From NCBI GenBank assembly GCA_027313705.1, contig DAHVDE010000019.1:1-64000 (forward strand): a stretch of DNA of 64,000 nt, written 5' to 3'. This DNA is from Actinomycetota bacterium (GTDB lineage: Bacteria; Actinomycetota; Actinomycetes; Streptosporangiales; Streptosporangiaceae). The position numbers and the translations under genes are program-made. Positions 16,650-55,662 of the stretch are shown here, piece after piece (the stretch's first letter is position 1; each line of letters starts with the position of its first letter). The notes under the pieces were generated by a model, which was not told where the DNA came from, ran no database searches, and saw only the letters and a list, made by a program, of their open reading frames with translations.

Positions 16650-17633
16650 CTAGAACCGGCCGAATGGCACCAGCGACGTCACCGCGACCGCGAGGAACAA
16701 GAACGTCAGGTAGCCGATCGACAGGTGGAACAGCCGCATCGGAGCGGCACCGCCGCCGCCAGCGATCCGGGTGCGCAGCCGGTGCGCTTCGATCAGGAAC
16801 CACCCGCCGAGACCGACCGCGCAGGTACCGTAAATCCAGCCGGCATACGGAGTAAGCGCGAAGGTGGTCGCGACCATGATCCAGCTATAGATTACGATCT
16901 TGCGGGCGACGACCGCCGGAGCGGCCACGACAGGAAGCATCGGGACACTGGCGGCGGCGTAGTCGTCCTTGAACTTCATTGCCAGCGCCCAGAAGTGCGG
17001 AGGTGTCCAGAAAAAGATCACGGCGAACAGCACGACCGCTGGCCAGGCCACCGTTCCGGTCACCGCAGCCCATCCGACCAGGACAGGAAAACAGCCGGCC
17101 GCTCCGCCGATCACGATGTTGGACGCCGTCCTGCGCTTCAGGCCGAGCGTGTAGACGAAGACGTAGAACAGCAGCGCGGCATCCGCCAGAGCCGCCGCCA
17201 GCCAGTTGGCCAGCAAGCCGAGCAGCAGGGTCGCCGCGATGCCAAGGACAATGCCGGAGATCATGGCCTCGGCGGGCTTGATCGTCGCCCCCCGCGCGCC
17301 CTTGGCCACCAGCGGGCGGCGCGAGGTGCGCCGCATTACCGCGTCGATATCACGATCGATATAGCAGTTGATCGTGTTCGCGCTGCCCGCAGCCAGAGCG
17401 CCGCCGACGAGAGTCACCAGCATGAGTTCGACAGAAGGCAAGCCCCGCTTGGCGAGCAGCATCGTCGGCAGCGTCGTGACCAAGAGCAACTCGATGATCC
17501 GCGGCTTAGTGAGCGCGAACAGGGAGCGCAGCACCAGTCCTGGTGACCGCCGCGTCACGAGCGACGAATCGCCCTGGCCGACGGCGGCCTTCAGTGCCGC
17601 CGTCTCAGGCAGCGCGTTCGTCGCCTGCGTCAC
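16650..17633 (-). CDS. ctaB: Protoheme IX farnesyltransferase (heme O synthase, CtaB/CyoE)
   Basis: A 327-residue UbiA-superfamily membrane enzyme that farnesylates heme b to heme O, the precursor of heme A. The first prenyl-diphosphate motif is [22 protein letters not shown] (N...D..D), and the second conserved loop reads [20 protein letters not shown]. Eight to nine helices are expected. The start is GTG with CGGAGG seven bases upstream, overlapping the stop of the small membrane protein by four bases. Its position at the end of the oxidase operon indicates that it supplies heme to that oxidase. Confidence 0.93.
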
Positions 17634-17938
17634 TCGCTACCCTCCGTGCTCTCCCCTGTCGCGTCCTCAGGAGCCTCGCCCTCCGCATCCTCGCCATCAT
17701 CTTGCAGAGTACTACCGTTCGTAGTGCTCTGCGTGGCCGAGGTACCTTGTCGCGCCGCCATCGCCCAGCGACTTGATGTCAGCGCCACGTGCCCAGGTAC
17801 CCGATGCGCGCTGCGGAAGCGCAAGAACAGCGCCGCCGCCACGATGATGAACATCAGCATCGGGAAGGCGAACGTCAGATTATACCCATGCGGTACATTA
17901 TCTGGCGAAATCGCCGCCGCGAGCAGTACTCGATGCAC
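17630..17938 (-). CDS. Small one-TM protein in the oxidase operon
   Basis: A predicted 102-residue protein. The GTG at 17938 follows GAGGAGG at a good distance, so I prefer it over an upstream in-frame codon that would overlap subunit III. A short N-terminal part is followed by one transmembrane helix ([18 protein letters not shown]), then a soluble tail ending in an acidic Glu/Asp/Ser/Thr-rich stretch. It lies between subunit III and ctaB and overlaps ctaB by four bases. It could be a small oxidase subunit or assembly factor; I recognise no family. Confidence 0.65.
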
Positions 17939-17967
17939 TACTGCCTCCTCAGTGCCAGAATCCAGGG

Positions 17968-18636
17968 TCAGTGCACCACATAGAAGAGCAGCCACAGCAC
18001 TAGGGCCGCCACTGCCGTGAAGTTGTAGAACAGCGTGAACGCGCTCAGGTTAGCCTGGAATCGCTGCACGTCGGCCGCCTCGTCAAAGGTCGGAGGCTGC
18101 TCGACGAACGAGATGTCAGGGATGTTCCTGCTGCGTGCCACCAGGATCTCGAGCCACACCATGCAGCCGAGGACCAGCAGGGCGAAGACCGGCATCGCGC
18201 CGACGAACACGCTCGCGAAGCCTGCCTGGCCTGGCTGGAACGGCAGAATGGTGAGCTGCCAGATCTGAAGCGCGGCAGCCACGAGGCCGAGCAGCAGCGC
18301 TGCCACCGCCGCTGCGAACCACGGCTGCTTGCGCCCCGCCTTGATCTGGGTCAGGCCGACCGACTGGATGATGGCGCTGGCCACGGTAAGTGCCATGATC
18401 AGCAGGCCCTCGATCTTGTTGGGCGGCGTCAGGCTCGACGGATACCAGTTGCCGTGCGAGTTCACCGAGCGCAAGTAGAAGAACGCGAAGACGAAGCCGC
18501 CGAGACCGGAGGTGACGATACCGATCATCAGCCGGGAACCCGTCCACGCCGCGTTCAGCGCCGCTTCGTGGTAGAAGGCTTCTTCTTCCTGCTCGCGGCT
18601 CAGGCCGCTTGGTGTGGCAGAGGTCATCTCGGCCAT
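17968..18636 (-). CDS. ctaE: Heme-copper oxidase subunit III
   Basis: A 222-residue membrane protein with five hydrophobic segments, matching short (five-helix) forms of subunit III. The N-terminus carries an acidic EQEEEAFYHEAALNAAW stretch before helix 1, and FFYLRSVNSHGNWYPS resembles the segment after the first helix in such subunits. It contains no redox centre; subunit III stabilises the oxidase and its proton uptake. GGAGG lies about ten bases before the ATG. It starts five bases after the subunit I stop. Confidence 0.87.
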   Translation of the reverse strand: MAEMTSATPSGLSREQEEEAFYHEAALNAAWTGSRLMIGIVTSGLGGFVFAFFYLRSVNSHGNWYPSSLTPPNKIEGLLIMALTVASAIIQSVGLTQIKAGRKQPWFAAAVAALLLGLVAAALQIWQLTILPFQPGQAGFASVFVGAMPVFALLVLGCMVWLEILVARSRNIPDISFVEQPPTFDEAADVQRFQANLSAFTLFYNFTAVAALVLWLLFYVVH

Positions 18637-18641
18637 GTCTG

Positions 18642-20630
18642 CTAAGCCTCCGCTCTGGCGGTCTCGGATTCTGAGAGTCCGGCAGCCAGAACTCCGACTG
18701 GCGGATTGAGGTCGGCCACCGGAGGCGCGTCCTTCACTCCGTACTCGTACGGACCGGAGAGCACCACGGGCACGGTCTCGAAGTTGTCAGCCGGCGGCGG
18801 CGAGGAAACCTGCCATTCCAGCCCGCGCGACTTCCACGGGTTCCCCGTCTCCCGGTTCCTGACCACGACGGTCGACCAGACGAAGTTGATGATGAAGATA
18901 AGGATCGAGACGCCGAGGAAGAACGAGGAGATCGATACCCAGTCGTTCAGCGTCGTCAGGTTGCGTGCGTACTCGAACACCCGGCGCGGCTGGCCTGCCA
19001 GGCCTACCGCGAACAGCGGCAGGAAGGTCGAGTTGAACGCGATGAACATGAGCCAGAAGTGGACCCGGCCCAGCTTCTCGTTCAGCGAGATGCCCATCAT
19101 CTTCGGCAGCCAGTAGTAACAGCCGCCCATGAAGGCGAAGATCAGGCCGCCCATGATGGTGTAGTGGAAGTGCGCCATCACGAAGAAGCTGCCGTGCTCG
19201 GTGGTGTCGGCAGGAACGTCAGAGAGGTAGACGCCCGAGATGCCGCCGATCAGGAAGTTGAAGTAGAAGGCCAGGCAGAACAGCATCGGAACGGTGAACC
19301 TGATCTTCGCTTTCCAAAGCGTCCCCATGCCGACCAGGAAGATGAAGCCGGTCGGAATCGAGATCAGCTCGGTGGTCAGCATGTACAGCGGGCGCATGTC
19401 GGGGTCGATGCCGCTGTCGAACAGGTGATGCTGCCACACGAAGAAGCTGAGCAGCGTCACGCCGATCATGCCCGCCGAAGCGACCTTGTAACCGAACAGC
19501 GGCTTGCGAGTGAACACCGGCAGCAGCTCAGAGACGATGGCGAAGCCTGGCAGCGCCAGGATGTACACCTCGGGATGCCCGAAGAACCAGAACAGGTCCT
19601 CGTACAGATAGGTGCTGCCGCCCAGGTTGTCGGTGAAGAACGCCGTCTGCGCGGTCCGGTCAAGCAGCAGCATGTACATGCCGCCTGACAGGATCGGCGC
19701 GGCCAGCGCCATCATGGTGCCGGTGCCGAGGATGCCCCAGACGAACATCGGCAGCCTGCCCCAGCGCATGCCAGGCGCCCGGTAGCAGATGACCGTGACC
19801 AGGATGTTGAACGAGGCCAGGATCATCGAGATACCCATCAGGCCGAACGCGAAAGCGTAAGCGTCGGCGCCTGAGGTGTCCTGTACCGACAGCGTCGGGT
19901 AACCGGTCCAGCCGAAGTGGAAGCCGCCGAGCGGCAGCGCCGAGAGCAGCACCAGGAAGGCGGCCGGGGTAAGCCAGAACGACAGTGCCTCGATCCTCGG
20001 GAAGGCGACTCGCTTCGAGCCGATCATCAACGGGATTAGGTAGTTGCCGAACGGGCCGAGGATCACCGACGTCATCAGCATCATCATCATCGTGCCGTGC
20101 TCGCCCACGATCTCGACGTAGACGCTCGAGCTGAATACGTGGTGCACCGGCGAGAGCAGCTCTGTCCTGATGCCCATCGCCAGCAGGCCAGCAGTGCAGA
20201 AATAAATGATCATGCCAATGAGGTACTGGATACCGACGACCTTGTGGTCGAGGGTAAACCTGAAGTACTTAGCTACGCCGCCGTTGGCCTCGTGCCCGTT
20301 CTGCGGCAGTCTCTTGCCCAGCATCAGCTTGACGAGGTCGTTGAAGACCCCGAGGCCGATCAGCCAGCCGACCAGCATGAACGTGTACCCGAGCACGATC
20401 GCGAAGTCGTTGCCGTCGGACGTGCCGATCTGCTGGTACGCCGCAGGCGAGTTCGCTGTCGGCACCGCCCAGTAGTTGCCGAGCCAGTGCCCGAACGCGT
20501 AACCAATGATCGCGCCTATCACACCGGTGTGCAGCGCCGGGCGTGCCCACCAGGCACCGGCTCCCGGCGTGCCGACGGGATCAGGCCCTCCGGGCCGTTG
20601 GGTTGTTCCCGCCTCTGTTTCGATGGCCAT
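18642..20630 (-). CDS. ctaD: Heme-copper oxidase subunit I lacking the classical D- and K-channel residues
   Basis: A 662-residue catalytic subunit that reduces oxygen to water. Metal ligands are present: H178 in EHGTMM and H489 in HFHY for the low-spin heme, H352 and Y356 in GHPEVY, H401/H402 in WQHHLF, and H487 for the high-spin heme. Two extra hydrophobic helices (about 33-55 and 75-98) precede the canonical helix I (DHKVVGIQYLIG). The D-channel entry normally written PDMAFPRMNN reads KRVAFPRIEA, and the K-channel PTGIK reads PTGFI. The glutamate of GHPEVY is kept. ATG 20630 has AGAGGTGA upstream. It lies within the subunit II-I-III operon. Confidence 0.93.
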   Translation of the reverse strand: MAIETEAGTTQRPGGPDPVGTPGAGAWWARPALHTGVIGAIIGYAFGHWLGNYWAVPTANSPAAYQQIGTSDGNDFAIVLGYTFMLVGWLIGLGVFNDLVKLMLGKRLPQNGHEANGGVAKYFRFTLDHKVVGIQYLIGMIIYFCTAGLLAMGIRTELLSPVHHVFSSSVYVEIVGEHGTMMMMLMTSVILGPFGNYLIPLMIGSKRVAFPRIEALSFWLTPAAFLVLLSALPLGGFHFGWTGYPTLSVQDTSGADAYAFAFGLMGISMILASFNILVTVICYRAPGMRWGRLPMFVWGILGTGTMMALAAPILSGGMYMLLLDRTAQTAFFTDNLGGSTYLYEDLFWFFGHPEVYILALPGFAIVSELLPVFTRKPLFGYKVASAGMIGVTLLSFFVWQHHLFDSGIDPDMRPLYMLTTELISIPTGFIFLVGMGTLWKAKIRFTVPMLFCLAFYFNFLIGGISGVYLSDVPADTTEHGSFFVMAHFHYTIMGGLIFAFMGGCYYWLPKMMGISLNEKLGRVHFWLMFIAFNSTFLPLFAVGLAGQPRRVFEYARNLTTLNDWVSISSFFLGVSILIFIINFVWSTVVVRNRETGNPWKSRGLEWQVSSPPPADNFETVPVVLSGPYEYGVKDAPPVADLNPPVGVLAAGLSESETARAEA

Positions 20631-20687: not shown

Positions 20688-21680
20688 TCATGGCTGTGAA
20701 GGGTCGTTCGGCGGATAGTAGCCGCCGCCCGCACCGGTCAGGCCGAGCTTGACTAGCACGGTTCCGAGCTGCTTGATCTCGGTCGGGTCGTACGTCGTGG
20801 CGTAAGGCGGCAGCATCTTGGTGACGTCGGCGAAGTGTGCCTGGCTCGCGGTAGCCCAGGACTGGAACGCCGACTGGGTCATCACCGAGCCGTAGTCGTA
20901 CATCGCGCCGTGCCATAGTCCGCACAGCTCGTCGCAGCGTACGGTGATCGATCCGAGCTGGAGCGGCTTGGTGTACGCGACGTTGTTCACGCCAGGGTCC
21001 GCGTCGGCCTTCACACCGAGCTGGTAGGCCCAGAAGTCGTGAATGACGTCGATGGAAGTGACGTCGAACTCCACCCATTGGTTCTGCGGAACCGCGAGGT
21101 AAGTGGTCTCGAAGCCACCGAACTGGGGATACCGGTAGGTGAACCGCCATTGCTGCGCGATCACCTGGATCACCAGCGGCTTGCTGGCCGAGTAAGGCGC
21201 CATTTGCTGCGCCACGGTCAGTTCGGCACCTGGCGGGTTCACGATCGGCGACGGACCTTCGCCGCTGCCCGCGCCCGCGCCTGGCCCGTTCACGAGTTCG
21301 TAGGTACCGAAGCCGAACAGGCAGAGCACGATCACGGTGGTCAAAGTGATCCAGGTGACCTGAACCCTGGTGTTGCCGTGAATCGGCGGACCGTCTTCCT
21401 CGTCGCCTTCCCTGTGCCGCCAGACGATCAGCGAGTAAATGAACTGGATCAGCACGAAGACCATCACCGGCGCGGCCATGGCCGACATCACCTTGATGTC
21501 GAACTGCTGGCCGTTGGCTGCCGATGCCAGGTCTCCTGGTGGCAGATGCGGTCCGAGCACAAACCAGATCAGCAGATCGGAGGCTAGCGCGAGCACCAGC
21601 CAGATGATGAAGATCCGCATGCCATGGTTGGGCTCGCGCTCGCCCGCCCCGGTGGCCGGAGCCGAAGTCTCCGCGGCCAT
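20688..21680 (-). CDS. ctaC: Heme-copper oxidase subunit II with CuA site
   Basis: A 330-residue subunit II. It has three probable N-terminal helices (about 22-43, 66-88, 107-126; the usual number is two), then a periplasmic-side cupredoxin domain. The CuA ligands are complete: H214 in DVIHDFWAYQ, then C249, C253, H257 and M260 in RCDELCGLWHGAM. The start is ATG 21680, sharing one base with the stop of the upstream cupredoxin-like gene (TGATG); the longer open frame lies inside that gene and is rejected. No fused cytochrome c domain is present, so the electron donor must be separate. Confidence 0.92.
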   Translation of the reverse strand: MAAETSAPATGAGEREPNHGMRIFIIWLVLALASDLLIWFVLGPHLPPGDLASAANGQQFDIKVMSAMAAPVMVFVLIQFIYSLIVWRHREGDEEDGPPIHGNTRVQVTWITLTTVIVLCLFGFGTYELVNGPGAGAGSGEGPSPIVNPPGAELTVAQQMAPYSASKPLVIQVIAQQWRFTYRYPQFGGFETTYLAVPQNQWVEFDVTSIDVIHDFWAYQLGVKADADPGVNNVAYTKPLQLGSITVRCDELCGLWHGAMYDYGSVMTQSAFQSWATASQAHFADVTKMLPPYATTYDPTEIKQLGTVLVKLGLTGAGGGYYPPNDPSQP

Positions 21681-22366
21681 CAGGACACCACCTCCATCTG
21701 TCCGGTCATAAAGCCGATGGTCTGCATGGGGCCGCCGAACCCGTCTAGGTAACCAAGACCGCAAGGCACGCGGCACTGCCAGAAGTAGTCGCCGTCACTC
21801 TTCGGGGCGTTGAAACTGAAGGTAACCGTGGTGTGCGGACCCGAAGTACACGGCGATAGCCCGCACACGTTCTTGTTGGCACTCAGCGTGGTCGGTGAGG
21901 CGACTGGCACGTTCAGCCCGATACCAGGGATGGAGAACGTGTGCCCGACCGAACAGCTAGCCCACGAGTTCAGCACGGAGACCGGCGAGCCGTTGACGTC
22001 CTCGACGCCGCCGATCGTCCCTGTCACCATGCCCCAGAACGGGTTGCGCAGCGGGGTGCAGCCGTCGTACCCAAGTATGGTCACGTTGACCCGGCTGCCT
22101 GCTGGTACCTGGAACAAGGTGGTATGCACCCAGGCTCCGGTCTTCGGGTCCTTGATGAAGTAAGAGACCCAGTCCGGATGGTTGCTCACCGTATTCTGCG
22201 GATCTTCTTGCAGCATGATGCTGACTGGCTGACCTGGCGCCACGCCTGCCGCATAGTCCACCACCGGGGGTCCAGCAAGCAGGAAGTGGATGACGACGAA
22301 GATCACGCCACCGACCACGGCGAGGAACGCCACAAGGAGAGTTCCTACGCGGACCGGCAGGGACAT
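21680..22366 (-). CDS. Membrane-anchored cupredoxin-like protein heading the oxidase operon
   Basis: A 228-residue protein with one N-terminal anchor (about 7-31) and a cupredoxin-like outer domain. Likely copper-related residues are H142 in VGHTFSIPG, C198 and C202 in WQCRVPCGLG, and M214 in GGPMQTIG. The C-x3-C spacing resembles CuA, but the canonical His and Met after the second Cys are not at the usual positions (Tyr206 sits where His is expected). It is the first gene of the operon and coupled to subunit II by TGATG. It may be a second subunit II-like module, an electron donor or a copper-insertion factor. GAGGTGGTGA precedes the ATG. Confidence 0.78.
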   Translation of the reverse strand: MSLPVRVGTLLVAFLAVVGGVIFVVIHFLLAGPPVVDYAAGVAPGQPVSIMLQEDPQNTVSNHPDWVSYFIKDPKTGAWVHTTLFQVPAGSRVNVTILGYDGCTPLRNPFWGMVTGTIGGVEDVNGSPVSVLNSWASCSVGHTFSIPGIGLNVPVASPTTLSANKNVCGLSPCTSGPHTTVTFSFNAPKSDGDYFWQCRVPCGLGYLDGFGGPMQTIGFMTGQMEVVS

Positions 22367-22752
22367 CAGTCACCACCTCGTTTCTTCGCGGCGCATAGCG
22401 CGCGCACGACTCGGTCCGGGCGGCGTCGCCCATGCGGGCCGCGCCGGAAGCAAACGACTGCCCTGATACTGCTGCTCGCCGTAAGCGGCGGCAAGACTGC
22501 CGGGTATGCATGACGAAACTGTCATCATCTGTCACAGGACTTGCCTGCCTCGCCAGGAGCACACGACCCTGATAACCATCAAGCCGATCGGTTTACTTTC
22601 GCGATGTATGCGACGATTGCGACTTTTAGTCTTGACTTGCAGCGACGGCAGGAGTAGAACGCAAAGGACTACGACGGCGTGCTCCGCAGCCCCGGACCAA
22701 CATGGCGCAGCAGCACGTCGGCTCAGTCTGCCAGGTAGATGACAGGAACAAA
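22367..22752. other. 386-base divergent intergenic region between the oxidase operon and the two-component system
   Basis: No supported gene lies here. The left part, next to the oxidase operon, must hold its promoter, but I cannot name a convincing minus-strand box. Two TGTCA pentamers ten bases apart lie near 22518-22532. The right part contains a good plus-strand promoter for the response regulator, listed separately. Short open frames in this gap have no ribosome site. Confidence 0.6.
22632..22660 (+). promoter_or_regulatory. Sigma-70-type promoter for the response regulator
   Basis: TTGACT at 22632-22637 and TAGAAC at 22655-22660 are separated by 17 bases, a good match to the housekeeping consensus. 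The predicted transcript would start near 22667 and give a leader of about 85 bases before the ATG at 22753. Confidence 0.5.
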
Positions 22753-23475
22753 ATGACCTCAGTACGCGACGAGGCAGTTCAAGTGACGTGGGATGACCCG
22801 TCCTGCCCTGACGCCGCGAGGCCGCGCATTCTGGTGATCGACGACGAACCCCACATCAGCGCCTTCGTGGCCAGGGCACTCGAGCATTCCGGCTATCAGG
22901 TTGGCGTCGCGGCCAGCGCGGCCGACGGCATCGAGCAGGCCGGCGCCGGAGGTTGCGACCTGGTAATACTCGACCTGATCATGCCCGATCTGGACGGCAG
23001 GGCCGTGCTGGCCGCTATCTTGCGTAGCCGGCCTACCCAGGCCGTGCTCGTACTGTCTTGCAGCTCGGATGTAGGCACCAAGGTGGAATGCCTTGATCTG
23101 GGTGCCCGTGACTACCTGACGAAACCGTTCTCGCTGGCCGAGCTCGCAGCCAGGGTCAGGGCCGGGCTAAGGGAAACCGCCAAGCGCAGCGAGGTCATGC
23201 GCCTGGGCGACCTGACGCTCGACGCCGGCCGGCTCGTCGCCGACAACGGTGCCGGTCCCGCGGCACTGACCAGGCTGGAGTTTCTCTGCCTGCGCGCGCT
23301 GATGGAGCACGGTGGCGGCTCGGTAACCAAGAGCGAGTTGCTCGCCTCGGTCTGGGGCATTGACTTCGACCCTGGCTCGAACCTGGTCGATGTCTGCATC
23401 AGGAGATTGCGGGCCAAGCTGGGGTTCAATCTCATAGAGACGGTGCGCGGTGAGGGATACCGACTCGCGTCCTGA
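22753..23475 (+). CDS. OmpR/PhoB-type response regulator
   Basis: A 240-residue two-component regulator. The receiver domain (about 24-140) has the acidic pair in VIDDEPHIS, the phosphorylatable aspartate in VILDLIMPDLDG and the conserved lysine in YLTKPFSLAEL. The C-terminal winged helix ends with DVCIRRLRAKLG and VRGEGYRLA, typical of the OmpR class. The ATG at 22753 is chosen for the AGGAA seven bases upstream. It overlaps the kinase gene by 26 bases and diverges from the oxidase operon, so oxidase control is a reasonable inference. Confidence 0.9.
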   Translation: MTSVRDEAVQVTWDDPSCPDAARPRILVIDDEPHISAFVARALEHSGYQVGVAASAADGIEQAGAGGCDLVILDLIMPDLDGRAVLAAILRSRPTQAVLVLSCSSDVGTKVECLDLGARDYLTKPFSLAELAARVRAGLRETAKRSEVMRLGDLTLDAGRLVADNGAGPAALTRLEFLCLRALMEHGGGSVTKSELLASVWGIDFDPGSNLVDVCIRRLRAKLGFNLIETVRGEGYRLAS

Positions 23476-24619
23476 AGGCACCCTGGCGAACGGGCTGCTG
23501 CACGGTCGCCAGCCCGAGCTTGCCTGGCTGCTGCTCTGGCTGGTCTGCGTCGTGATCATGGTGACCTTTCCCGACTGGCAGGTCATTCCCTTCGACGCGA
23601 TCTGGATCAGCCTCGCGCTGCTTTACGGCTACCGGCTCTGGCCGAGCCGCCGCACCATCGCGCTGACCGCGACCGCGGCGGCGACCACGGTCGCCGCGCT
23701 CGCTGCCGACATGGTCGAGCACCTGCGCATCATGAACGCCTCAGTCGAGCAGATACCGCTGCTGACGACGATCTTCATCGTGATGGCGCTCCAGGCGCAC
23801 CGCCGGATGCTTGCCGGGGACCGGGCCAAGATGGCCGCCGACGCCCAGCGGATGCTCGCCGCGCAACGCCAGTTCCTGCAGGACGCATCGCACCAGCTCA
23901 GGACGCCGATCACGATCGCGCTCGGGCACGCGGAACTGCTCGGCGAGGACCTGGCCGGCCAGCAGCGGCGCGATATCAGCGTGGTAGTCGGCGAACTGGA
24001 AAGGCTGAAGACGCTCAGCGACCGGCTCTTGCTGATCGCGGCATCAGAGCACCAGAGTTCCCTGACCATGGAACCGACCGCACTCGACTCGCTCACGGTT
24101 GAGGTACTGCACCGCTGGCGGCGGACCGCGCCAAGGCGCTGGCAGCTCGGCAGGCTGGACCCGGTGACCGCGCTGGCCGATACCGAGCGCCTGGCGATGG
24201 CACTTGACGCGCTCGTCGAGAACGCGGTCAAGCACACCACGCCAGGCGACGCGATCAGGCTGGCGGTCAGCAGGGACGCCGATGACCGGTTCGCGCACAT
24301 AACCGTCGAAGACACCGGCGAAGGCATCTCCGATACCGACCTGCCGCACGTATTCGAGCGCTTCAGGACTTTTGCCAGAAGCAGCGCCAGAGGCACGGGG
24401 CTCGGCCTGGCCCTGGTCGAGGCCGTCGCCCGAGGTCATGGCGGGAGAGCGTGCGTGCACAGCAGGCACGGCCAAGGCAGCCGCTTCGAACTCCTGATCC
24501 CGGCCGCGCAATTCAGCCCAGAAGCCGCCTTCCCCGGCGCTCAGGTACCAGCCGAGGATCTTTCCGGCAAAGTAAGCACCGGCCGTCCCGCCCGCGTATC
24601 GCAGCGAGAAGCGCCGTGA
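23450..24619 (+). CDS. Sensor histidine kinase
   Basis: A 389-residue kinase paired with the overlapping regulator gene. The first part holds three or four hydrophobic helices (about 15-110) with almost no external loop, so sensing probably occurs within the membrane or through a partner. The phospho-acceptor box reads DASHQLRTPITIA near residue 150. The catalytic domain shows ALVENAVKHTTPGD (N box), VEDTGEGI (G1) and GTGLGLALVEAVARGHGG (G2). GTG start inside the regulator gene. The signal is unknown; the neighbouring oxidase and CtaG genes suggest a respiratory or copper cue. Confidence 0.9.
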   Translation: MRDTDSRPEGTLANGLLHGRQPELAWLLLWLVCVVIMVTFPDWQVIPFDAIWISLALLYGYRLWPSRRTIALTATAAATTVAALAADMVEHLRIMNASVEQIPLLTTIFIVMALQAHRRMLAGDRAKMAADAQRMLAAQRQFLQDASHQLRTPITIALGHAELLGEDLAGQQRRDISVVVGELERLKTLSDRLLLIAASEHQSSLTMEPTALDSLTVEVLHRWRRTAPRRWQLGRLDPVTALADTERLAMALDALVENAVKHTTPGDAIRLAVSRDADDRFAHITVEDTGEGISDTDLPHVFERFRTFARSSARGTGLGLALVEAVARGHGGRACVHSRHGQGSRFELLIPAAQFSPEAAFPGAQVPAEDLSGKVSTGRPARVSQREAP

Positions 24620-24674: not shown

Positions 24675-25325
24675 ATGCAGCCGACAATGACAGAACCGCC
24701 GCTGATCCCGCTCCGCAAGAGCGGCTGGCCGACCAGGCGAGCACCTCGCTGGACGCTGGTCGCCGCCCCGATCTTGCTGATCGCGGCAGTCCTGGTGGGC
24801 TTGTCGCACCATCCCACGAAGGGTCAGCGCGCCTTCGACCTTAGCGGCCTGATCAGCTCGCTGAACACCGACGTCGAGTCATGCGCGGGCGGCGTAGGCG
24901 ACTCGCTCGGTGCGCTGAAGTACATCGACAATGGCTCGAGCCACGACGTGAGCACCGCTATCAACATCGCGCAGACCGGCGCAGCCAACTGCTCGCCAGC
25001 TAACAACCAGCAGATGGACGACCTCACCAACGTCCAGGTTCCTGAGTCGCTTGCCAGCTATCACCTCCAGGCCGGAGTCAACGACCTGGTCAACTGGGGC
25101 GCGCACTACGCCGCCGCAGTGCAGAGCGACGTCGCGACCGTGCTCATGGACCGCGGCAAGCCGGCCGAGGCGAGTGCGGTGGCGGCGCTGAACGCGGCGA
25201 TCAGGACGCTCAAGGCGAAACGGGCCGCCGTCTTCGCCGCCTTCGCCCCCGCGATCAAGGCGCTCTCGCCTTCGACCAAGCTGACGACCCTTTGGGTAAC
25301 GGCCCGCCCGCCAAGCACCTACTAA
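24675..25325 (+). CDS. Anchored extracytoplasmic protein of unknown function
   Basis: A 216-residue protein with one N-terminal anchor (about 27-44) and an exported, mainly helical domain containing two cysteines (near 71 and 98) that could form a disulfide. I recognise no family. It lies 55 bases after the kinase and ten bases before ctaG, so it is probably part of the same operon. A role as signal receiver for the kinase, or as an oxidase assembly factor, is possible from context only. The start is uncertain: a second ATG lies 12 bases downstream. Confidence 0.65.
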   Translation: MQPTMTEPPLIPLRKSGWPTRRAPRWTLVAAPILLIAAVLVGLSHHPTKGQRAFDLSGLISSLNTDVESCAGGVGDSLGALKYIDNGSSHDVSTAINIAQTGAANCSPANNQQMDDLTNVQVPESLASYHLQAGVNDLVNWGAHYAAAVQSDVATVLMDRGKPAEASAVAALNAAIRTLKAKRAAVFAAFAPAIKALSPSTKLTTLWVTARPPSTY

Positions 25326-25335
25326 ATGAGGCGAA

Positions 25336-26232
25336 ATGTACAACCTCACTGACCACTGGTCATTCGACCCGTTCCTGATTATTGCCCTGGTGCTCGCCGG
25401 CTGGCATGAAGCCGGACTTGCCAAGCTGGCCAAGAAATCACGACCTGAGCGCACCAGGGAACGCAGGCTCAGGTCGCTGTATTTCTACGGTGGCCTGGTT
25501 ACCTTGCTGTTCGCGGTTGAATCCCCGATTGACTACTGGGCTGATAGCTATTTCTTCATGCACATGATCCAGCACCTGCTGCTGATGTTCGGCGCCCCGG
25601 TGCTGATCGTGGCCGGGGCGCCCTGGCAGCCTTTGCTCGACGGACTGCCGGGCCGGCTGGGCAAGAAGGCGACCCGCGAAGTGCTCAGCAGCGGCTGGAC
25701 GCGCCCGATCAGGATGATCGGGGGTTTCGTCCTGCGGCCGTGGGTATCGATTTTCTTGTTCAACGCCGTGATGGTCTTCTGGCACCTGCCAGGACCTTTC
25801 GACCTGGCATACCGCAATCATCTGGTGCATATTTGGCTGATGCACGGTAGTTTCTTTATCGCTGGCATCCTTTTCTGGCTCCAGTTCCTGCCTTCCCTGC
25901 CCTTCCGCATTAGGATGAGCCGCCCGGCGCAGATGGGCGCGCTGCTTATCACCAACGTGGAGATGTGGGTGCTGGCGATGGCGATGAGCATTCTCGCGAC
26001 AACGTCCTGGTATTCGGTCTACGCGCACGTTCGGGGTTCTGCCTTGTCGCCACTGGCCGACCAGCAGATCGGCGCCGCGTTTTTGTGGGTGTGCGGGGAC
26101 TTCTGGGCCATCCCGGCCATGCTGTTCGTCGTGCGGAAGCTAATCGCCGAGGACGGCGACGTCGGGTCGGCCGTCGACCGGATGCTCGGGCGGCGCGCCT
26201 CGCGCGCTTACCAGTGGGCCGGCCGTCAGTAA
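25336..26232 (+). CDS. ctaG: CtaG-type cytochrome c oxidase assembly protein
   Basis: A 298-residue membrane protein with about seven helices, of the caa3-type CtaG family involved in assembling the copper sites of the oxidase. Histidines that could bind copper are conserved: MHMIQHLLLMFGAP near residue 75, VFWHLPGPF near 145, and LVHIWLMHGSFF near 160. A later LADQQIGAAFLW segment is also characteristic. GAGG lies seven bases before the ATG. It closes the operon divergent from the oxidase genes and is followed by a strong bidirectional hairpin. Confidence 0.85.
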   Translation: MYNLTDHWSFDPFLIIALVLAGWHEAGLAKLAKKSRPERTRERRLRSLYFYGGLVTLLFAVESPIDYWADSYFFMHMIQHLLLMFGAPVLIVAGAPWQPLLDGLPGRLGKKATREVLSSGWTRPIRMIGGFVLRPWVSIFLFNAVMVFWHLPGPFDLAYRNHLVHIWLMHGSFFIAGILFWLQFLPSLPFRIRMSRPAQMGALLITNVEMWVLAMAMSILATTSWYSVYAHVRGSALSPLADQQIGAAFLWVCGDFWAIPAMLFVVRKLIAEDGDVGSAVDRMLGRRASRAYQWAGRQ

Positions 26233-53482: not shown

Positions 53483-53631
53483 GCGTCCCATCATCTACCC
53501 CGAGCCCGCCCGCCTGCCTGCGGTCAGGCCGCATCGGCCGCTGGAAGGAACGCAGGAATTTGCCGCTGTCCTCTGATATATCTGGCACTCGGCTCACCTG
53601 GCAATTTTCGGCGATCGACAACGGAGGATCA

Positions 53632-55662
53632 GTGCGCATAGGCTCGCCAAGCGGATCGTTCACCAGGCTGGCCGCCGTGGCCGCCGCGCTCGCGCTCGCC
53701 GGAGGGCTAGGCGCTGTCATGCCCGCTGCGGCTTCCACCGCTGCCGGCCGCCGGGTTTCCGCCGCCGGCCGGCCTGCGGCCACCAGGCCCGCGCTGCCCG
53801 CGGGCCAGCGCTACGTGTGCCCGCAGGCCACCAAACCTGGTCAGATGGAGTGCATGGCGATCGTCAAGTCGCTGCCAGGCGGCCTCGCACCTGCGGTGAC
53901 TGACGCGACCAACGGCGACTACGGGCCCGCTCAGCTGCGGAGCGCATACAAGCTGGTCAGCGCTGCGGTCAGGAGAGGCAAGGGCGTGACGGTCGCGATC
54001 GTCGATGCCTACCGGGATCCGAAGGCAGCCTCGGACCTGAGCCATTACCGCTCGCACTTCCACTTGAAGCCGTGCACGACCGCCAGCAAGTGCCTGCGGA
54101 TCGTGAACGAGTCAGGCAAGGCCAGCCCGCTTCCGTCCACGAACCCAAACTGGGCATTCGAGGAATCGCTTGACCTCGACATGGTCTCGGCGATCTGCCC
54201 GAACTGCCGCATCCTGCTGGTCGAGGCAAGCAGCACGTTCACAAGTGACCTGGGCAAGGCCGAAGACACCGCCATCCGCCTCGGCGCCAGGTACGTGTCC
54301 AACAGCTGGTCGGGCAGCGAATTCTACGGTCAGGACTACGCTAACGCGTTCTTCAATCACCCTGGCGACGTCATCGACTTCGCAGCCGGCGACTATGGCT
54401 ACGCCCCGCAGTACCCGACGGACTTGCAGTACGTCACCGCGGTGGGCGGGACTACGCTCACGCACGCGCGCAACCGTCGCGGCTGGCAGGAAAGCGCCTG
54501 GGGCGTTGCGCAGCTAGGTTCTGAGGGTACGGGTGGCGGCTGCTCGGCGTTCGAGCCGAAGCCATCCTGGCAGCGGGCCGACGCCAGCTACCTGAGCGGC
54601 TGCCTGAACCGCACTGAGGTTGACGTCTCCGCCGACGCCGACCCGAACACCGGCGCCCTGGTCTACGACAGCTACCAGCAGTATCCGCCTGGATTCGAGG
54701 AAGTTGGCGGCACGAGCGAGGCCACGCCGATCATCACCGCCACCTATGCGCTCGCCGGGACACCGAGCAGGGGCTCCTATCCGGCCGAATATCCCTATTT
54801 GCACACCGGGCACCTGTTCGATGTCACCTCGGGCGTGAACGGCACCTGCGAGAAGGCCAGGCGGTACCTCTGCCACGCCGCGAAGGGTTATGACGGCCCG
54901 ACCGGACTCGGCACGCCGGACGGCACCGGGGCGTTCGGCAACGGCACCACCCACCGGGTGGCCCTGGTCGACCCTGGCACCCAGGACGTGCAGGCAAGGT
55001 CGATGTTCTCGCTGACTATCACCGGGCTGGACACCAGCCACGCCGCCGCGCTGAGGTGGAGTGCAACCGGGCTGCCGCGCGGGCTGAGCATTCACGCCGT
55101 CAGCCACTCGACCAACGGCAAGATCACCGGCAAGCTCCCCGCCACCCCGCGCACCTTCGAGGTCACGGTGACAGGCAGGGACGGCAGTGTCAGGGCGACC
55201 ACGCACTTCGCGATCGTGAGCTTGCCATCGCTAACCGCAGCCGGCGGGTCGATCGTGGCCGGAATGAACCTGTGCCTGGACAACACGAGCGGCACCACGG
55301 TCAAGGTCGAGCCCTGCGTCAGTTCGCCAGGCGTCCCCGCCAGGCAGCGCTGGACGCTGGCCGGATCTGGCCAGATCGAGAGCGCCTCGGGCAGGTGCCT
55401 CGCCGCGACGGGCTTCCTGGCCAGAACCGTAGTGAAGCTCGAAGCCTGCAATATAGGCAACGGCTTCCAGTTCTGGTCTGCCGGGCCGTCAGGCGAGCTC
55501 CAGAATGACGCGCTCAGCCCGGCGGGAACGCCGTTCAGCATGTGCCTGGCCGATCCCGGCAGTAACCGTGCCGTGGCCTTTCCCGCCAGCGGCGGGATAG
55601 GCACCCAGGTCGAGCAAGACCAGTGCTACGGGTACGCGGGCGAGATCTGGACGCTTGGCTAG
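53632..55662 (+). CDS. Secreted S53 (sedolisin) peptidase with Ig-like and ricin-type lectin tail
   Basis: A 676-residue secreted acid-type serine-carboxyl peptidase. A signal peptide covers about 1-36. The catalytic residues are present: Glu177 and Asp181 in EESLDLDMVSAI, Asp254 in DFAAGDYGYAP and Ser362 in GGTSEATPII. The long pro-kumamolisin domain normally found first is missing or very short. After the protease come a putative Ig-like module (about 450-530) and a beta-trefoil lectin-like domain with NLCLDNTSG and RQRWTL repeats. GGAGG precedes the GTG start. The prepilin peptidase gene follows after ten bases. Confidence 0.87.
   Translation: MRIGSPSGSFTRLAAVAAALALAGGLGAVMPAAASTAAGRRVSAAGRPAATRPALPAGQRYVCPQATKPGQMECMAIVKSLPGGLAPAVTDATNGDYGPAQLRSAYKLVSAAVRRGKGVTVAIVDAYRDPKAASDLSHYRSHFHLKPCTTASKCLRIVNESGKASPLPSTNPNWAFEESLDLDMVSAICPNCRILLVEASSTFTSDLGKAEDTAIRLGARYVSNSWSGSEFYGQDYANAFFNHPGDVIDFAAGDYGYAPQYPTDLQYVTAVGGTTLTHARNRRGWQESAWGVAQLGSEGTGGGCSAFEPKPSWQRADASYLSGCLNRTEVDVSADADPNTGALVYDSYQQYPPGFEEVGGTSEATPIITATYALAGTPSRGSYPAEYPYLHTGHLFDVTSGVNGTCEKARRYLCHAAKGYDGPTGLGTPDGTGAFGNGTTHRVALVDPGTQDVQARSMFSLTITGLDTSHAAALRWSATGLPRGLSIHAVSHSTNGKITGKLPATPRTFEVTVTGRDGSVRATTHFAIVSLPSLTAAGGSIVAGMNLCLDNTSGTTVKVEPCVSSPGVPARQRWTLAGSGQIESASGRCLAATGFLARTVVKLEACNIGNGFQFWSAGPSGELQNDALSPAGTPFSMCLADPGSNRAVAFPASGGIGTQVEQDQCYGYAGEIWTLG

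What the first reader, a model, noticed from the sequence alone, without database searches (positions are those of the whole stretch)
18642..20630. Heme-copper oxidase subunit I with both canonical proton channels erased
All six metal-binding histidines and the GHPEVY tyrosine and glutamate are present, so the active site looks functional. Yet the D-channel aspartate (D132 in Rhodobacter numbering, within PDMAFPR) is Arg207 here (KRVAFPR), the following channel asparagines read Glu-Ala, and the K-channel lysine (K362, within PTGIK) is Ile430 (PTGFI). Two extra N-terminal helices are added. The enzyme may pump by another route or not pump at all. The substitutions are read from motif-anchored alignment done by eye.
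Basis: partly seen in the sequence, partly recalled or inferred. Interest (0 to 1): 0.75.

Follow-up and report, generated by a model that had tools for sequence, protein, structure and literature searches.

The report
Rewired oxidase of acid-loving iron oxidisers
This is a real oxygen-consuming respiratory enzyme from a family found in acid-loving, often iron-oxidising, Actinobacteria; in nearly all members the acidic entrance of one proton channel has moved by seven residues and the lysine of the other is gone, so they may make water from oxygen while pumping few protons or none.

Summary
The gene (18642-20630, minus strand, 662 aa) encodes an A-type heme-copper oxidase subunit I with all six metal-binding histidines, E286 and Y288 (Rhodobacter numbering). 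Gap-free alignment to solved oxidases gives D132->R207, N139->E214, N140->A215 and K362->I430.

It is not a one-off. Across 72 distinct sequences of a fully supported clade in Actinomycetota, D132 is Arg/Lys (70) or Gly (2), N139 is Glu (71), and K362 is never Lys. None of 34 comparison oxidases has R/K-132 or E-139. Members include Acidithrix ferrooxidans, Ferrithrix, Ferrimicrobium and Trebonia; isolates checked also carry a canonical D/N/K oxidase. The conserved operon is cupredoxin-like protein, CoxB (CuA intact), CoxA, CoxIII-like protein.

I correct "both channels erased". The K-channel lysine is lost. The D-channel looks rebuilt: Y33, N121, S142, N207 and E286 persist and the entrance acid sits at the N139 position, where an acid decouples pumping in laboratory mutants. 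The two extra N-terminal helices are a described "2TM" feature.

My reading: an oxidase for high-potential donors such as iron, using cytoplasmic protons through the altered D-path and pumping little or nothing. Pumping is untested.

The parts
18642..20630 (-). coxA: A-type heme-copper oxidase subunit I, 662 aa, 2TM type
   Evidence: PF00115 E=1e-121; solved relatives E down to 4e-117; fold match to R. sphaeroides aa3
20466..20534 (-). extra N-terminal helix 1 (residues 33-55)
   Evidence: AlphaFold helix
20352..20408 (-). extra N-terminal helix 2 (residues 75-93)
   Evidence: AlphaFold helix; hydropathy
20010..20012 (-). R207 codon, D-channel entrance position D132
19989..19991 (-). E214 codon, D-channel asparagine-gate position N139
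   Evidence: Glu in 71/72 clade sequences
19569..19571 (-). E354 codon (E286), end of the D-channel
19563..19565 (-). Y356 codon (Y288), active-site tyrosine
19341..19343 (-). I430 codon, K-channel position K362
20688..21680 (-). coxB: subunit II with intact CuA site (longest ORF runs to 21776; conserved Met at 21680 is the likelier start)
   Evidence: PF00116 5e-11, TIGR02866 1e-34; H246, C281, E283, C285, H289, M292 conserved
21680..22366 (-). conserved membrane-anchored cupredoxin-like protein of unknown family
   Evidence: no Pfam/NCBIfam hit; upstream of coxB in clade operons; invariant H142, C198, C202, M214 and C168/C173
17968..18636 (-). CoxIII-like subunit (weak similarity)
   Evidence: phmmer to COX3 E=0.009; conserved next to coxA
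17630..17995 (-). small membrane protein, often present in Streptosporangiaceae copies of the operon
16650..17633 (-). ctaB, heme O synthase
   Evidence: NF003349 2e-124
22702..24619 (+). divergent two-component system (response regulator and histidine kinase)
   Evidence: PF00072/PF00486, PF00512/PF02518; conserved beside the operon in many relatives
25336..26232 (+). ctaG (caa3 type), CuB assembly factor
   Evidence: PF09678 5e-48

Best explanation
The gene encodes subunit I of a catalytically competent aa3-type cytochrome c oxidase of the '2TM' subgroup, in a clade seen here only in Actinomycetota and rich in acidophilic iron oxidisers. Shown: the K-channel lysine is lost; the D-channel entrance Asp is Arg/Lys; a Glu replaces the Asn gate seven residues on; most of the path from there to E286 is kept; CuA, heme and CuB ligands are kept. 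Inferred: Glu214 takes over as proton acceptor at the cytoplasmic mouth, and the protons for water formation reach E354/Y356 through this shortened D-path, without a K-path. Inferred: the enzyme takes electrons of high potential (Fe(II) through periplasmic copper proteins, perhaps the cupredoxin-like partner), conserves energy by charge separation and cytoplasmic proton consumption, and pumps well under 1 H+/e-, possibly none. The second, canonical oxidase of the same cells would serve the ordinary bc-linked chain.
For: Clade-wide fixed pattern R/K-132, E-139, non-Lys-362 with E286, Y288, N207 and all ligands invariant. E-139 persists when 132 is Gly. CuA site conserved. Conserved operon with a cupredoxin-like protein, resembling Cup-CoxBACD-CtaAB of Acidithiobacillus (PMC10654088). 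Iron oxidisers Acidithrix and Ferrithrix each carry one canonical and one clade oxidase; F. acidiphilum has two a-type oxidases and an aa3 turns over at 35 per s on iron at a chain potential of 0.786 V (PMC8350767). Acid at the N139 position abolishes pumping but keeps O2 reduction in model enzymes (PMC12901375). Fe(II) couple +0.77 V at pH 2 (PMC13053071) leaves too little driving force for full pumping.
Against: In the decoupled model mutants D132 is still present; from memory, the D132N/N139D double mutant pumps again. K362M in model enzymes blocks heme a3 reduction (PMC12901375), and no replacement for K362 was identified. Position S193/S201 of the D-path is hydrophobic here. Conexibacter sp. 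DBS9H8 has R-132 with S-139 and so no acid at either place. The host is not shown to oxidise iron: no sulfocyanin/rusticyanin-family (PF06525) gene was found, and Trebonia-type members are soil bacteria. Not verified that WP_052566320.1 belongs to this clade.
Confidence: 0.5

Rival explanations
1. A fully pumping oxidase with a shifted D-channel: E214 replaces D132 functionally, as in the laboratory double mutant D132N/N139D, and the D-path carries both substrate and pumped protons.
For: E-139 conserved in 71/72 while 132 is never acidic; E286, N207, N121 and S142 mostly kept; D132N/N139D recoupling is known to me from the literature but could not be read here.
Against: Driving force from Fe(II) is too small for 1 H+/e-, although members living on organic carbon would not face that limit; 132 is Arg/Lys rather than neutral; K362 and S201 equivalents lost.
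Confidence: 0.27
2. Protons enter by another route: an H-type path, the periplasmic side, or a new path using clade-specific buried acids such as E421 on helix VIII and E177 beside the heme a ligand.
For: E421, S424, Q400, D471 and G480 are fixed in all 72 clade sequences, E177 in 68 of 71, and all are rare or absent elsewhere.
Against: By position E421 lies toward the periplasmic side of Y288, not on a cytoplasmic entry path (inferred from helix order); taking substrate protons from outside would conserve no energy; the D-path is largely kept.
Confidence: 0.13
3. A different chemistry (NO reductase-like or an oxygen sensor), not respiration.
For: Loss of the canonical channel residues; a two-component system next door.
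Against: Y288, CuA site, CoxIII-like protein, ctaB and ctaG all present; no NOR glutamates replacing ligands; far closer to aa3 oxidases than to anything else.
Confidence: 0.04
4. Pseudogene, chimera or sequencing error.
For: The host is a draft assembly of 118 contigs.
Against: Uninterrupted 662-aa frame, all ligands intact, same residues in 72 distinct sequences including isolates.
Confidence: 0.01

Closest known systems
Actinobacterial aa3 oxidase subunit I CtaD (M. smegmatis, PDB 6adq/8ovc)
   Same: Best sequence hit (about 40% identity), same fold, ligands, E286 and Y288
   Different: D115, N122 and K340 there; R207, E214 and I430 here; two extra N-terminal helices here; NCBIfam actinobacterial equivalog cut-off is not reached (462 vs 880 bits)
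'2TM' COX1 of iron-oxidising bacteria (Degli Esposti et al. 2021, PMC8239418)
   Same: Two extra N-terminal helices; acidophilic iron-oxidiser hosts; caa3-type ctaG nearby
   Different: That paper centres on Proteobacteria and archaea in the text I could read; the R/E/I set in this actinobacterial clade is not described there (supplement unread)
Cytochrome 605 of Ferrimicrobium acidiphilum (WP_052566320.1)
   Same: aa3-type oxidase in the same group of organisms, active in iron respiration (PMC8350767)
   Different: Its sequence was not compared here; it could be the canonical or the clade oxidase of that species
D-channel and K-channel point mutants of R. sphaeroides / P. denitrificans aa3 (N139D, D132N, K362M)
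   Same: The same positions changed; an acid at 139 decouples pumping while activity stays (PMC12901375)
   Different: Here all three positions change together, naturally, with a positive charge at 132 and Glu rather than Asp at 139
Alphaproteobacterial plasmid-borne oxidases lacking K362 (L145, L146, L151-L153)
   Same: K362 replaced, N121 lost, A-type active site
   Different: K362 is Gln, D132 mostly kept, N207 is Glu; separate in the tree

Membership tests
Heme-copper oxidase superfamily, subunit I (PF00115) | Six histidine ligands for two hemes and CuB | tested here: met
   H178, H352, H401, H402, H487, H489; PF00115 407 bits vs cut-off 34.8
A-type oxidase (A1) | Active-site Tyr in GHPEVY with E278 (P. 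denitrificans) / E286 | tested here: met
   E354, Y356; 72/72 in clade
A-type oxidase (A1) | D-channel Asp124, Asn131 and Ser193 | tested here: not met
   R207, E214, M269 (definition from PMC3084760)
A-type oxidase (A1) | D-channel Tyr35, Asn113, Ser134, Asn199 | tested here: met
   Y136, N196, S217, N275
A-type oxidase (A1) | K-channel Lys354 | tested here: not met
   I430; no Lys in 72 clade sequences
A-type oxidase (A1) | K-channel Thr351, Ser291, Tyr280 | tested here: met
   T427, S367, Y356 in this protein; S367 is variable in the clade
A2-type oxidase | Tyr in place of the D-channel Glu278 | tested here: not met
   E354 is present
B-type oxidase | Closest similarity to ba3-type enzymes | tested here: not met
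   Best A-type hits E about 1e-117, ba3 about 5e-12
2TM COX1 subgroup | Two additional N-terminal transmembrane helices | tested here: met
   Helices 33-55 and 75-93; hydropathy weaker for the first
2TM COX1 subgroup | Phylogenetic placement with the published 2TM clade | not tested
   Acidithiobacillus-type sequences could not be fetched
Cytochrome c oxidase (CuA-bearing) | CuA ligands in subunit II | tested here: met
   H246, C281, E283, C285, H289, M292 conserved
Iron-respiration oxidase | Function in Fe(II)-dependent respiration | tested here: inconclusive
   Clade hosts include iron oxidisers and gene order resembles the Acidithiobacillus set; no functional data for the clade enzyme itself
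Non-pumping oxidase | Pumped protons per electron | not testable with these tools
   Needs the purified enzyme or cells

The most novel reading that the evidence does not exclude
A natural, non-pumping branch of A-type heme-copper oxidases in which the D-channel entrance was inverted (Arg/Lys at 132, Glu at 139) and the K-channel abolished, so that one altered channel supplies all substrate protons. It would be an adaptation to iron respiration at almost no driving force, run beside a normal pumping oxidase in the same cell.
Probability: 0.35. Interest if true: 0.8.

Novelty: new variant of a known kind. Interest (0 to 1): 0.6.

Why it matters
Decades of work on oxidase pumping rest on point mutants at exactly these positions. 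A large natural family that carries a lysine-less K-channel, a positive charge at the D-channel mouth and an acid at the asparagine gate is an evolutionary version of those experiments. If it does not pump, it shows how iron oxidisers with very little driving force separate oxygen reduction from pumping; if it does pump, the D132 and K362 requirements are not universal in A-type enzymes. Either outcome is measurable in culturable species (Acidithrix, Ferrithrix, Ferrimicrobium, Trebonia).

Tried and rejected
A DNA pattern scan for AFPRxEA across 396 genomes was too unspecific: most hits lay outside COX1, though it found five more clade members; it was replaced by the profile search. AlphaFold coordinates are not exposed, so I could not measure R207-E214 distances or trace water paths; only fold-level comparison was possible. 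Acidithiobacillus, Sulfobacillus and Leptospirillum oxidase sequences could not be fetched, so whether their COX1 share R/E/I is open. Papers on D132N/N139D recoupling and the Degli Esposti 2020 review did not turn up in the library. I rejected 'K362 loss is unique to this clade': six comparison oxidases have Gln and one Glu there. I dropped 'R413 is clade-specific' because some canonical oxidases have it. I make no claim that the cupredoxin-like protein is homologous to Cup/AcoP: no sequence hit in solved structures. The last paper search was a mistaken call after the cap.

Full report
Observation. The reading frame at 18642-20630 (minus strand) encodes 662 aa, matches Pfam COX1 over residues 132-570 with E=1e-121 and is one of two COX1 genes in the host genome. 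phmmer alignments to solved mycobacterial subunits I are gap-free across the D- and K-channel segments. M. smegmatis Asp115 and Lys340, after which the channels are named (PMC11189923), fall on R207 and I430; Asn122 falls on E214. The host's other oxidase has D, N and K at these places in an equally clean pairwise alignment. All six metal-binding histidines, E354 (E286), Y356 (Y288) and the propionate arginines are present.

How general it is. Whole-genome searches returned relatives at about 55-85% identity, well separated from canonical oxidases at about 40%. I compared 72 distinct clade sequences with 34 other oxidases (actinobacterial, alphaproteobacterial, cyanobacterial, planctomycete, haloarchaeal, acidobacterial). 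Position 132 is R59/K11/G2 in the clade and never R/K outside; position 139 is E71/S1 in the clade and never E outside; position 362 is I55/L12/V3/T2 in the clade and K27/Q6/E1 outside. The clade is one side of a branch with 100% SH-aLRT support; the rooting is by midpoint and several comparison branches are long and unsure, but the clade itself is not in doubt. It was found in 7 of 396 Actinomycetota genomes sampled, the window's own included. Named members are Acidithrix ferrooxidans, Ferrithrix thermotolerans, Ferrimicrobium sp., Acidiferrimicrobium sp., Trebonia kvetii and Conexibacter sp. DBS9H8; the rest are MAGs, some from bog, palsa and other soils judging by isolate names.

Two oxidases per cell. 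The Ferrimicrobium MAG shows only the clade enzyme, but it is a draft. This split fits two electron routes better than a decaying duplicate, and agrees with the report that F. acidiphilum has just two a-type oxidases (PMC8350767).

What is rebuilt. The D-channel residues listed for A1 enzymes (PMC3084760) are mixed here: the equivalents of Y35, N113, S134, N199 and E278 are kept (Y136, N196, S217, N275, E354), while D124, N131 and S193 have become R207, E214 and M269. The entrance carboxylate is displaced by seven residues rather than deleted. The Glu is the firmer of the two changes: where 132 is Gly the Glu stays (L088, L103). One member, Conexibacter, has R132 with S139 and so has neither acid. 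K362 is hydrophobic or Thr throughout and no replacement lysine is evident. Other fixed clade traits are E177 beside heme a ligand H178 (68 of 71), Q400 before the CuB histidine pair, E421 and S424 on helix VIII, D471, and G480 where other oxidases have Asp; by my knowledge of the bovine and Rhodobacter structures that Asp helps bind Mg.

Surroundings. The operon on the minus strand is cupredoxin-like protein, coxB, coxA, CoxIII-like gene, a small gene and ctaB, with a divergent two-component system and ctaG on the plus strand. CoxB keeps every CuA ligand, so this is not a quinol oxidase. The first gene matches no Pfam or NCBIfam family and no solved structure convincingly, yet H142, C198, C202 and M214 are invariant, which suggests a copper site. 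The arrangement recalls the Cup, CoxBACD and CtaAB iron-oxidation genes of Acidithiobacillus (PMC10654088). No c-type cytochrome motif (CXXCH) was seen in the seven clade loci scanned. The predicted structure, modest in confidence (mean pLDDT 68), has helices 33-55 and 75-93 ahead of the canonical ones and matches R. sphaeroides and P. denitrificans aa3 with TM about 0.8 on the target.

Mechanism. Most likely, Glu214 collects cytoplasmic protons and passes them to E354 and the active site along the retained D-path; without K362 the protons for the reductive phase must use the same path. This is inference. In model enzymes an acid at the N139 position, with D132 still present, abolishes pumping but not activity, and K362M blocks heme a3 reduction (PMC12901375). 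From memory, the D132N/N139D double mutant regains pumping, so sequence alone cannot decide. Thermodynamics tilts the choice: Fe(II) at +0.77 V (PMC13053071) and a cellular chain at +0.786 V (PMC8350767), against about +0.85 V for O2 at cytoplasmic pH (general knowledge), leave under 0.1 V per electron, too little for one pumped proton against an acidophile's proton-motive force. I therefore favour low or zero pumping at about 0.5, full pumping through the shifted channel at 0.27 and another proton route at 0.13. The argument from iron applies only to members that respire iron; for the window's host this is not shown, and no sulfocyanin/rusticyanin-family gene was found in it. It also has a cytochrome bd oxidase.

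Comparison and novelty. It belongs to the heme-copper superfamily and to the A type by sequence and fold, but fails the A1 definition at D124, N131, S193 and K354 and the A2 definition at Glu278. The two extra N-terminal helices are the '2TM' feature already described for iron oxidisers, and that work also reports repeated K-channel loss and D-channel variants among archaeal enzymes (PMC8239418); its supplementary channel tables could not be read. What I did not find described is the coupled set D132R/K, N139E and non-Lys 362, fixed across an actinobacterial clade that keeps a canonical oxidase beside it. Hence 'new variant of a known kind', interest 0.6.

Noticed in passing
L106/L172 (Conexibacter sp. 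DBS9H8) and L170 (Acidiferrimicrobium sp. IK): A third COX1 type in these acidophiles lacks D132, N139 and also E286 (Val) and has Glu at the K362 position: a different channel-poor oxidase, unrelated to the clade described.
   Followed up: no
L145, L146, L151, L152, L153: Plasmid-borne alphaproteobacterial oxidases with K362->Gln and N207->Glu; in Rhizobium sp. N621 D132 is also Asn. They are a second natural set of altered proton channels.
   Followed up: partly
L100 (Acidobacteria bacterium AB60): COX1 with HPWVY instead of HPEVY, Cys at W280 and Gln at K362.
   Followed up: no
window 21680-22366: Conserved cupredoxin-like protein in no Pfam or NCBIfam family, present upstream of coxB in nearly every clade locus with enough flank; invariant His, two Cys and Met suggest a copper site.
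   Followed up: partly
window 24675-25325: Conserved unannotated 216-aa protein between the histidine kinase and ctaG, with relatives beside many clade operons.
   Followed up: no
G000:C34:7270-8589: The host also encodes a cytochrome bd oxidase subunit I, so it has at least three terminal oxidases.
   Followed up: no
window 53560-55662: Subtilase-family protease with a C-terminal ricin-type beta-trefoil lectin domain.
   Followed up: no
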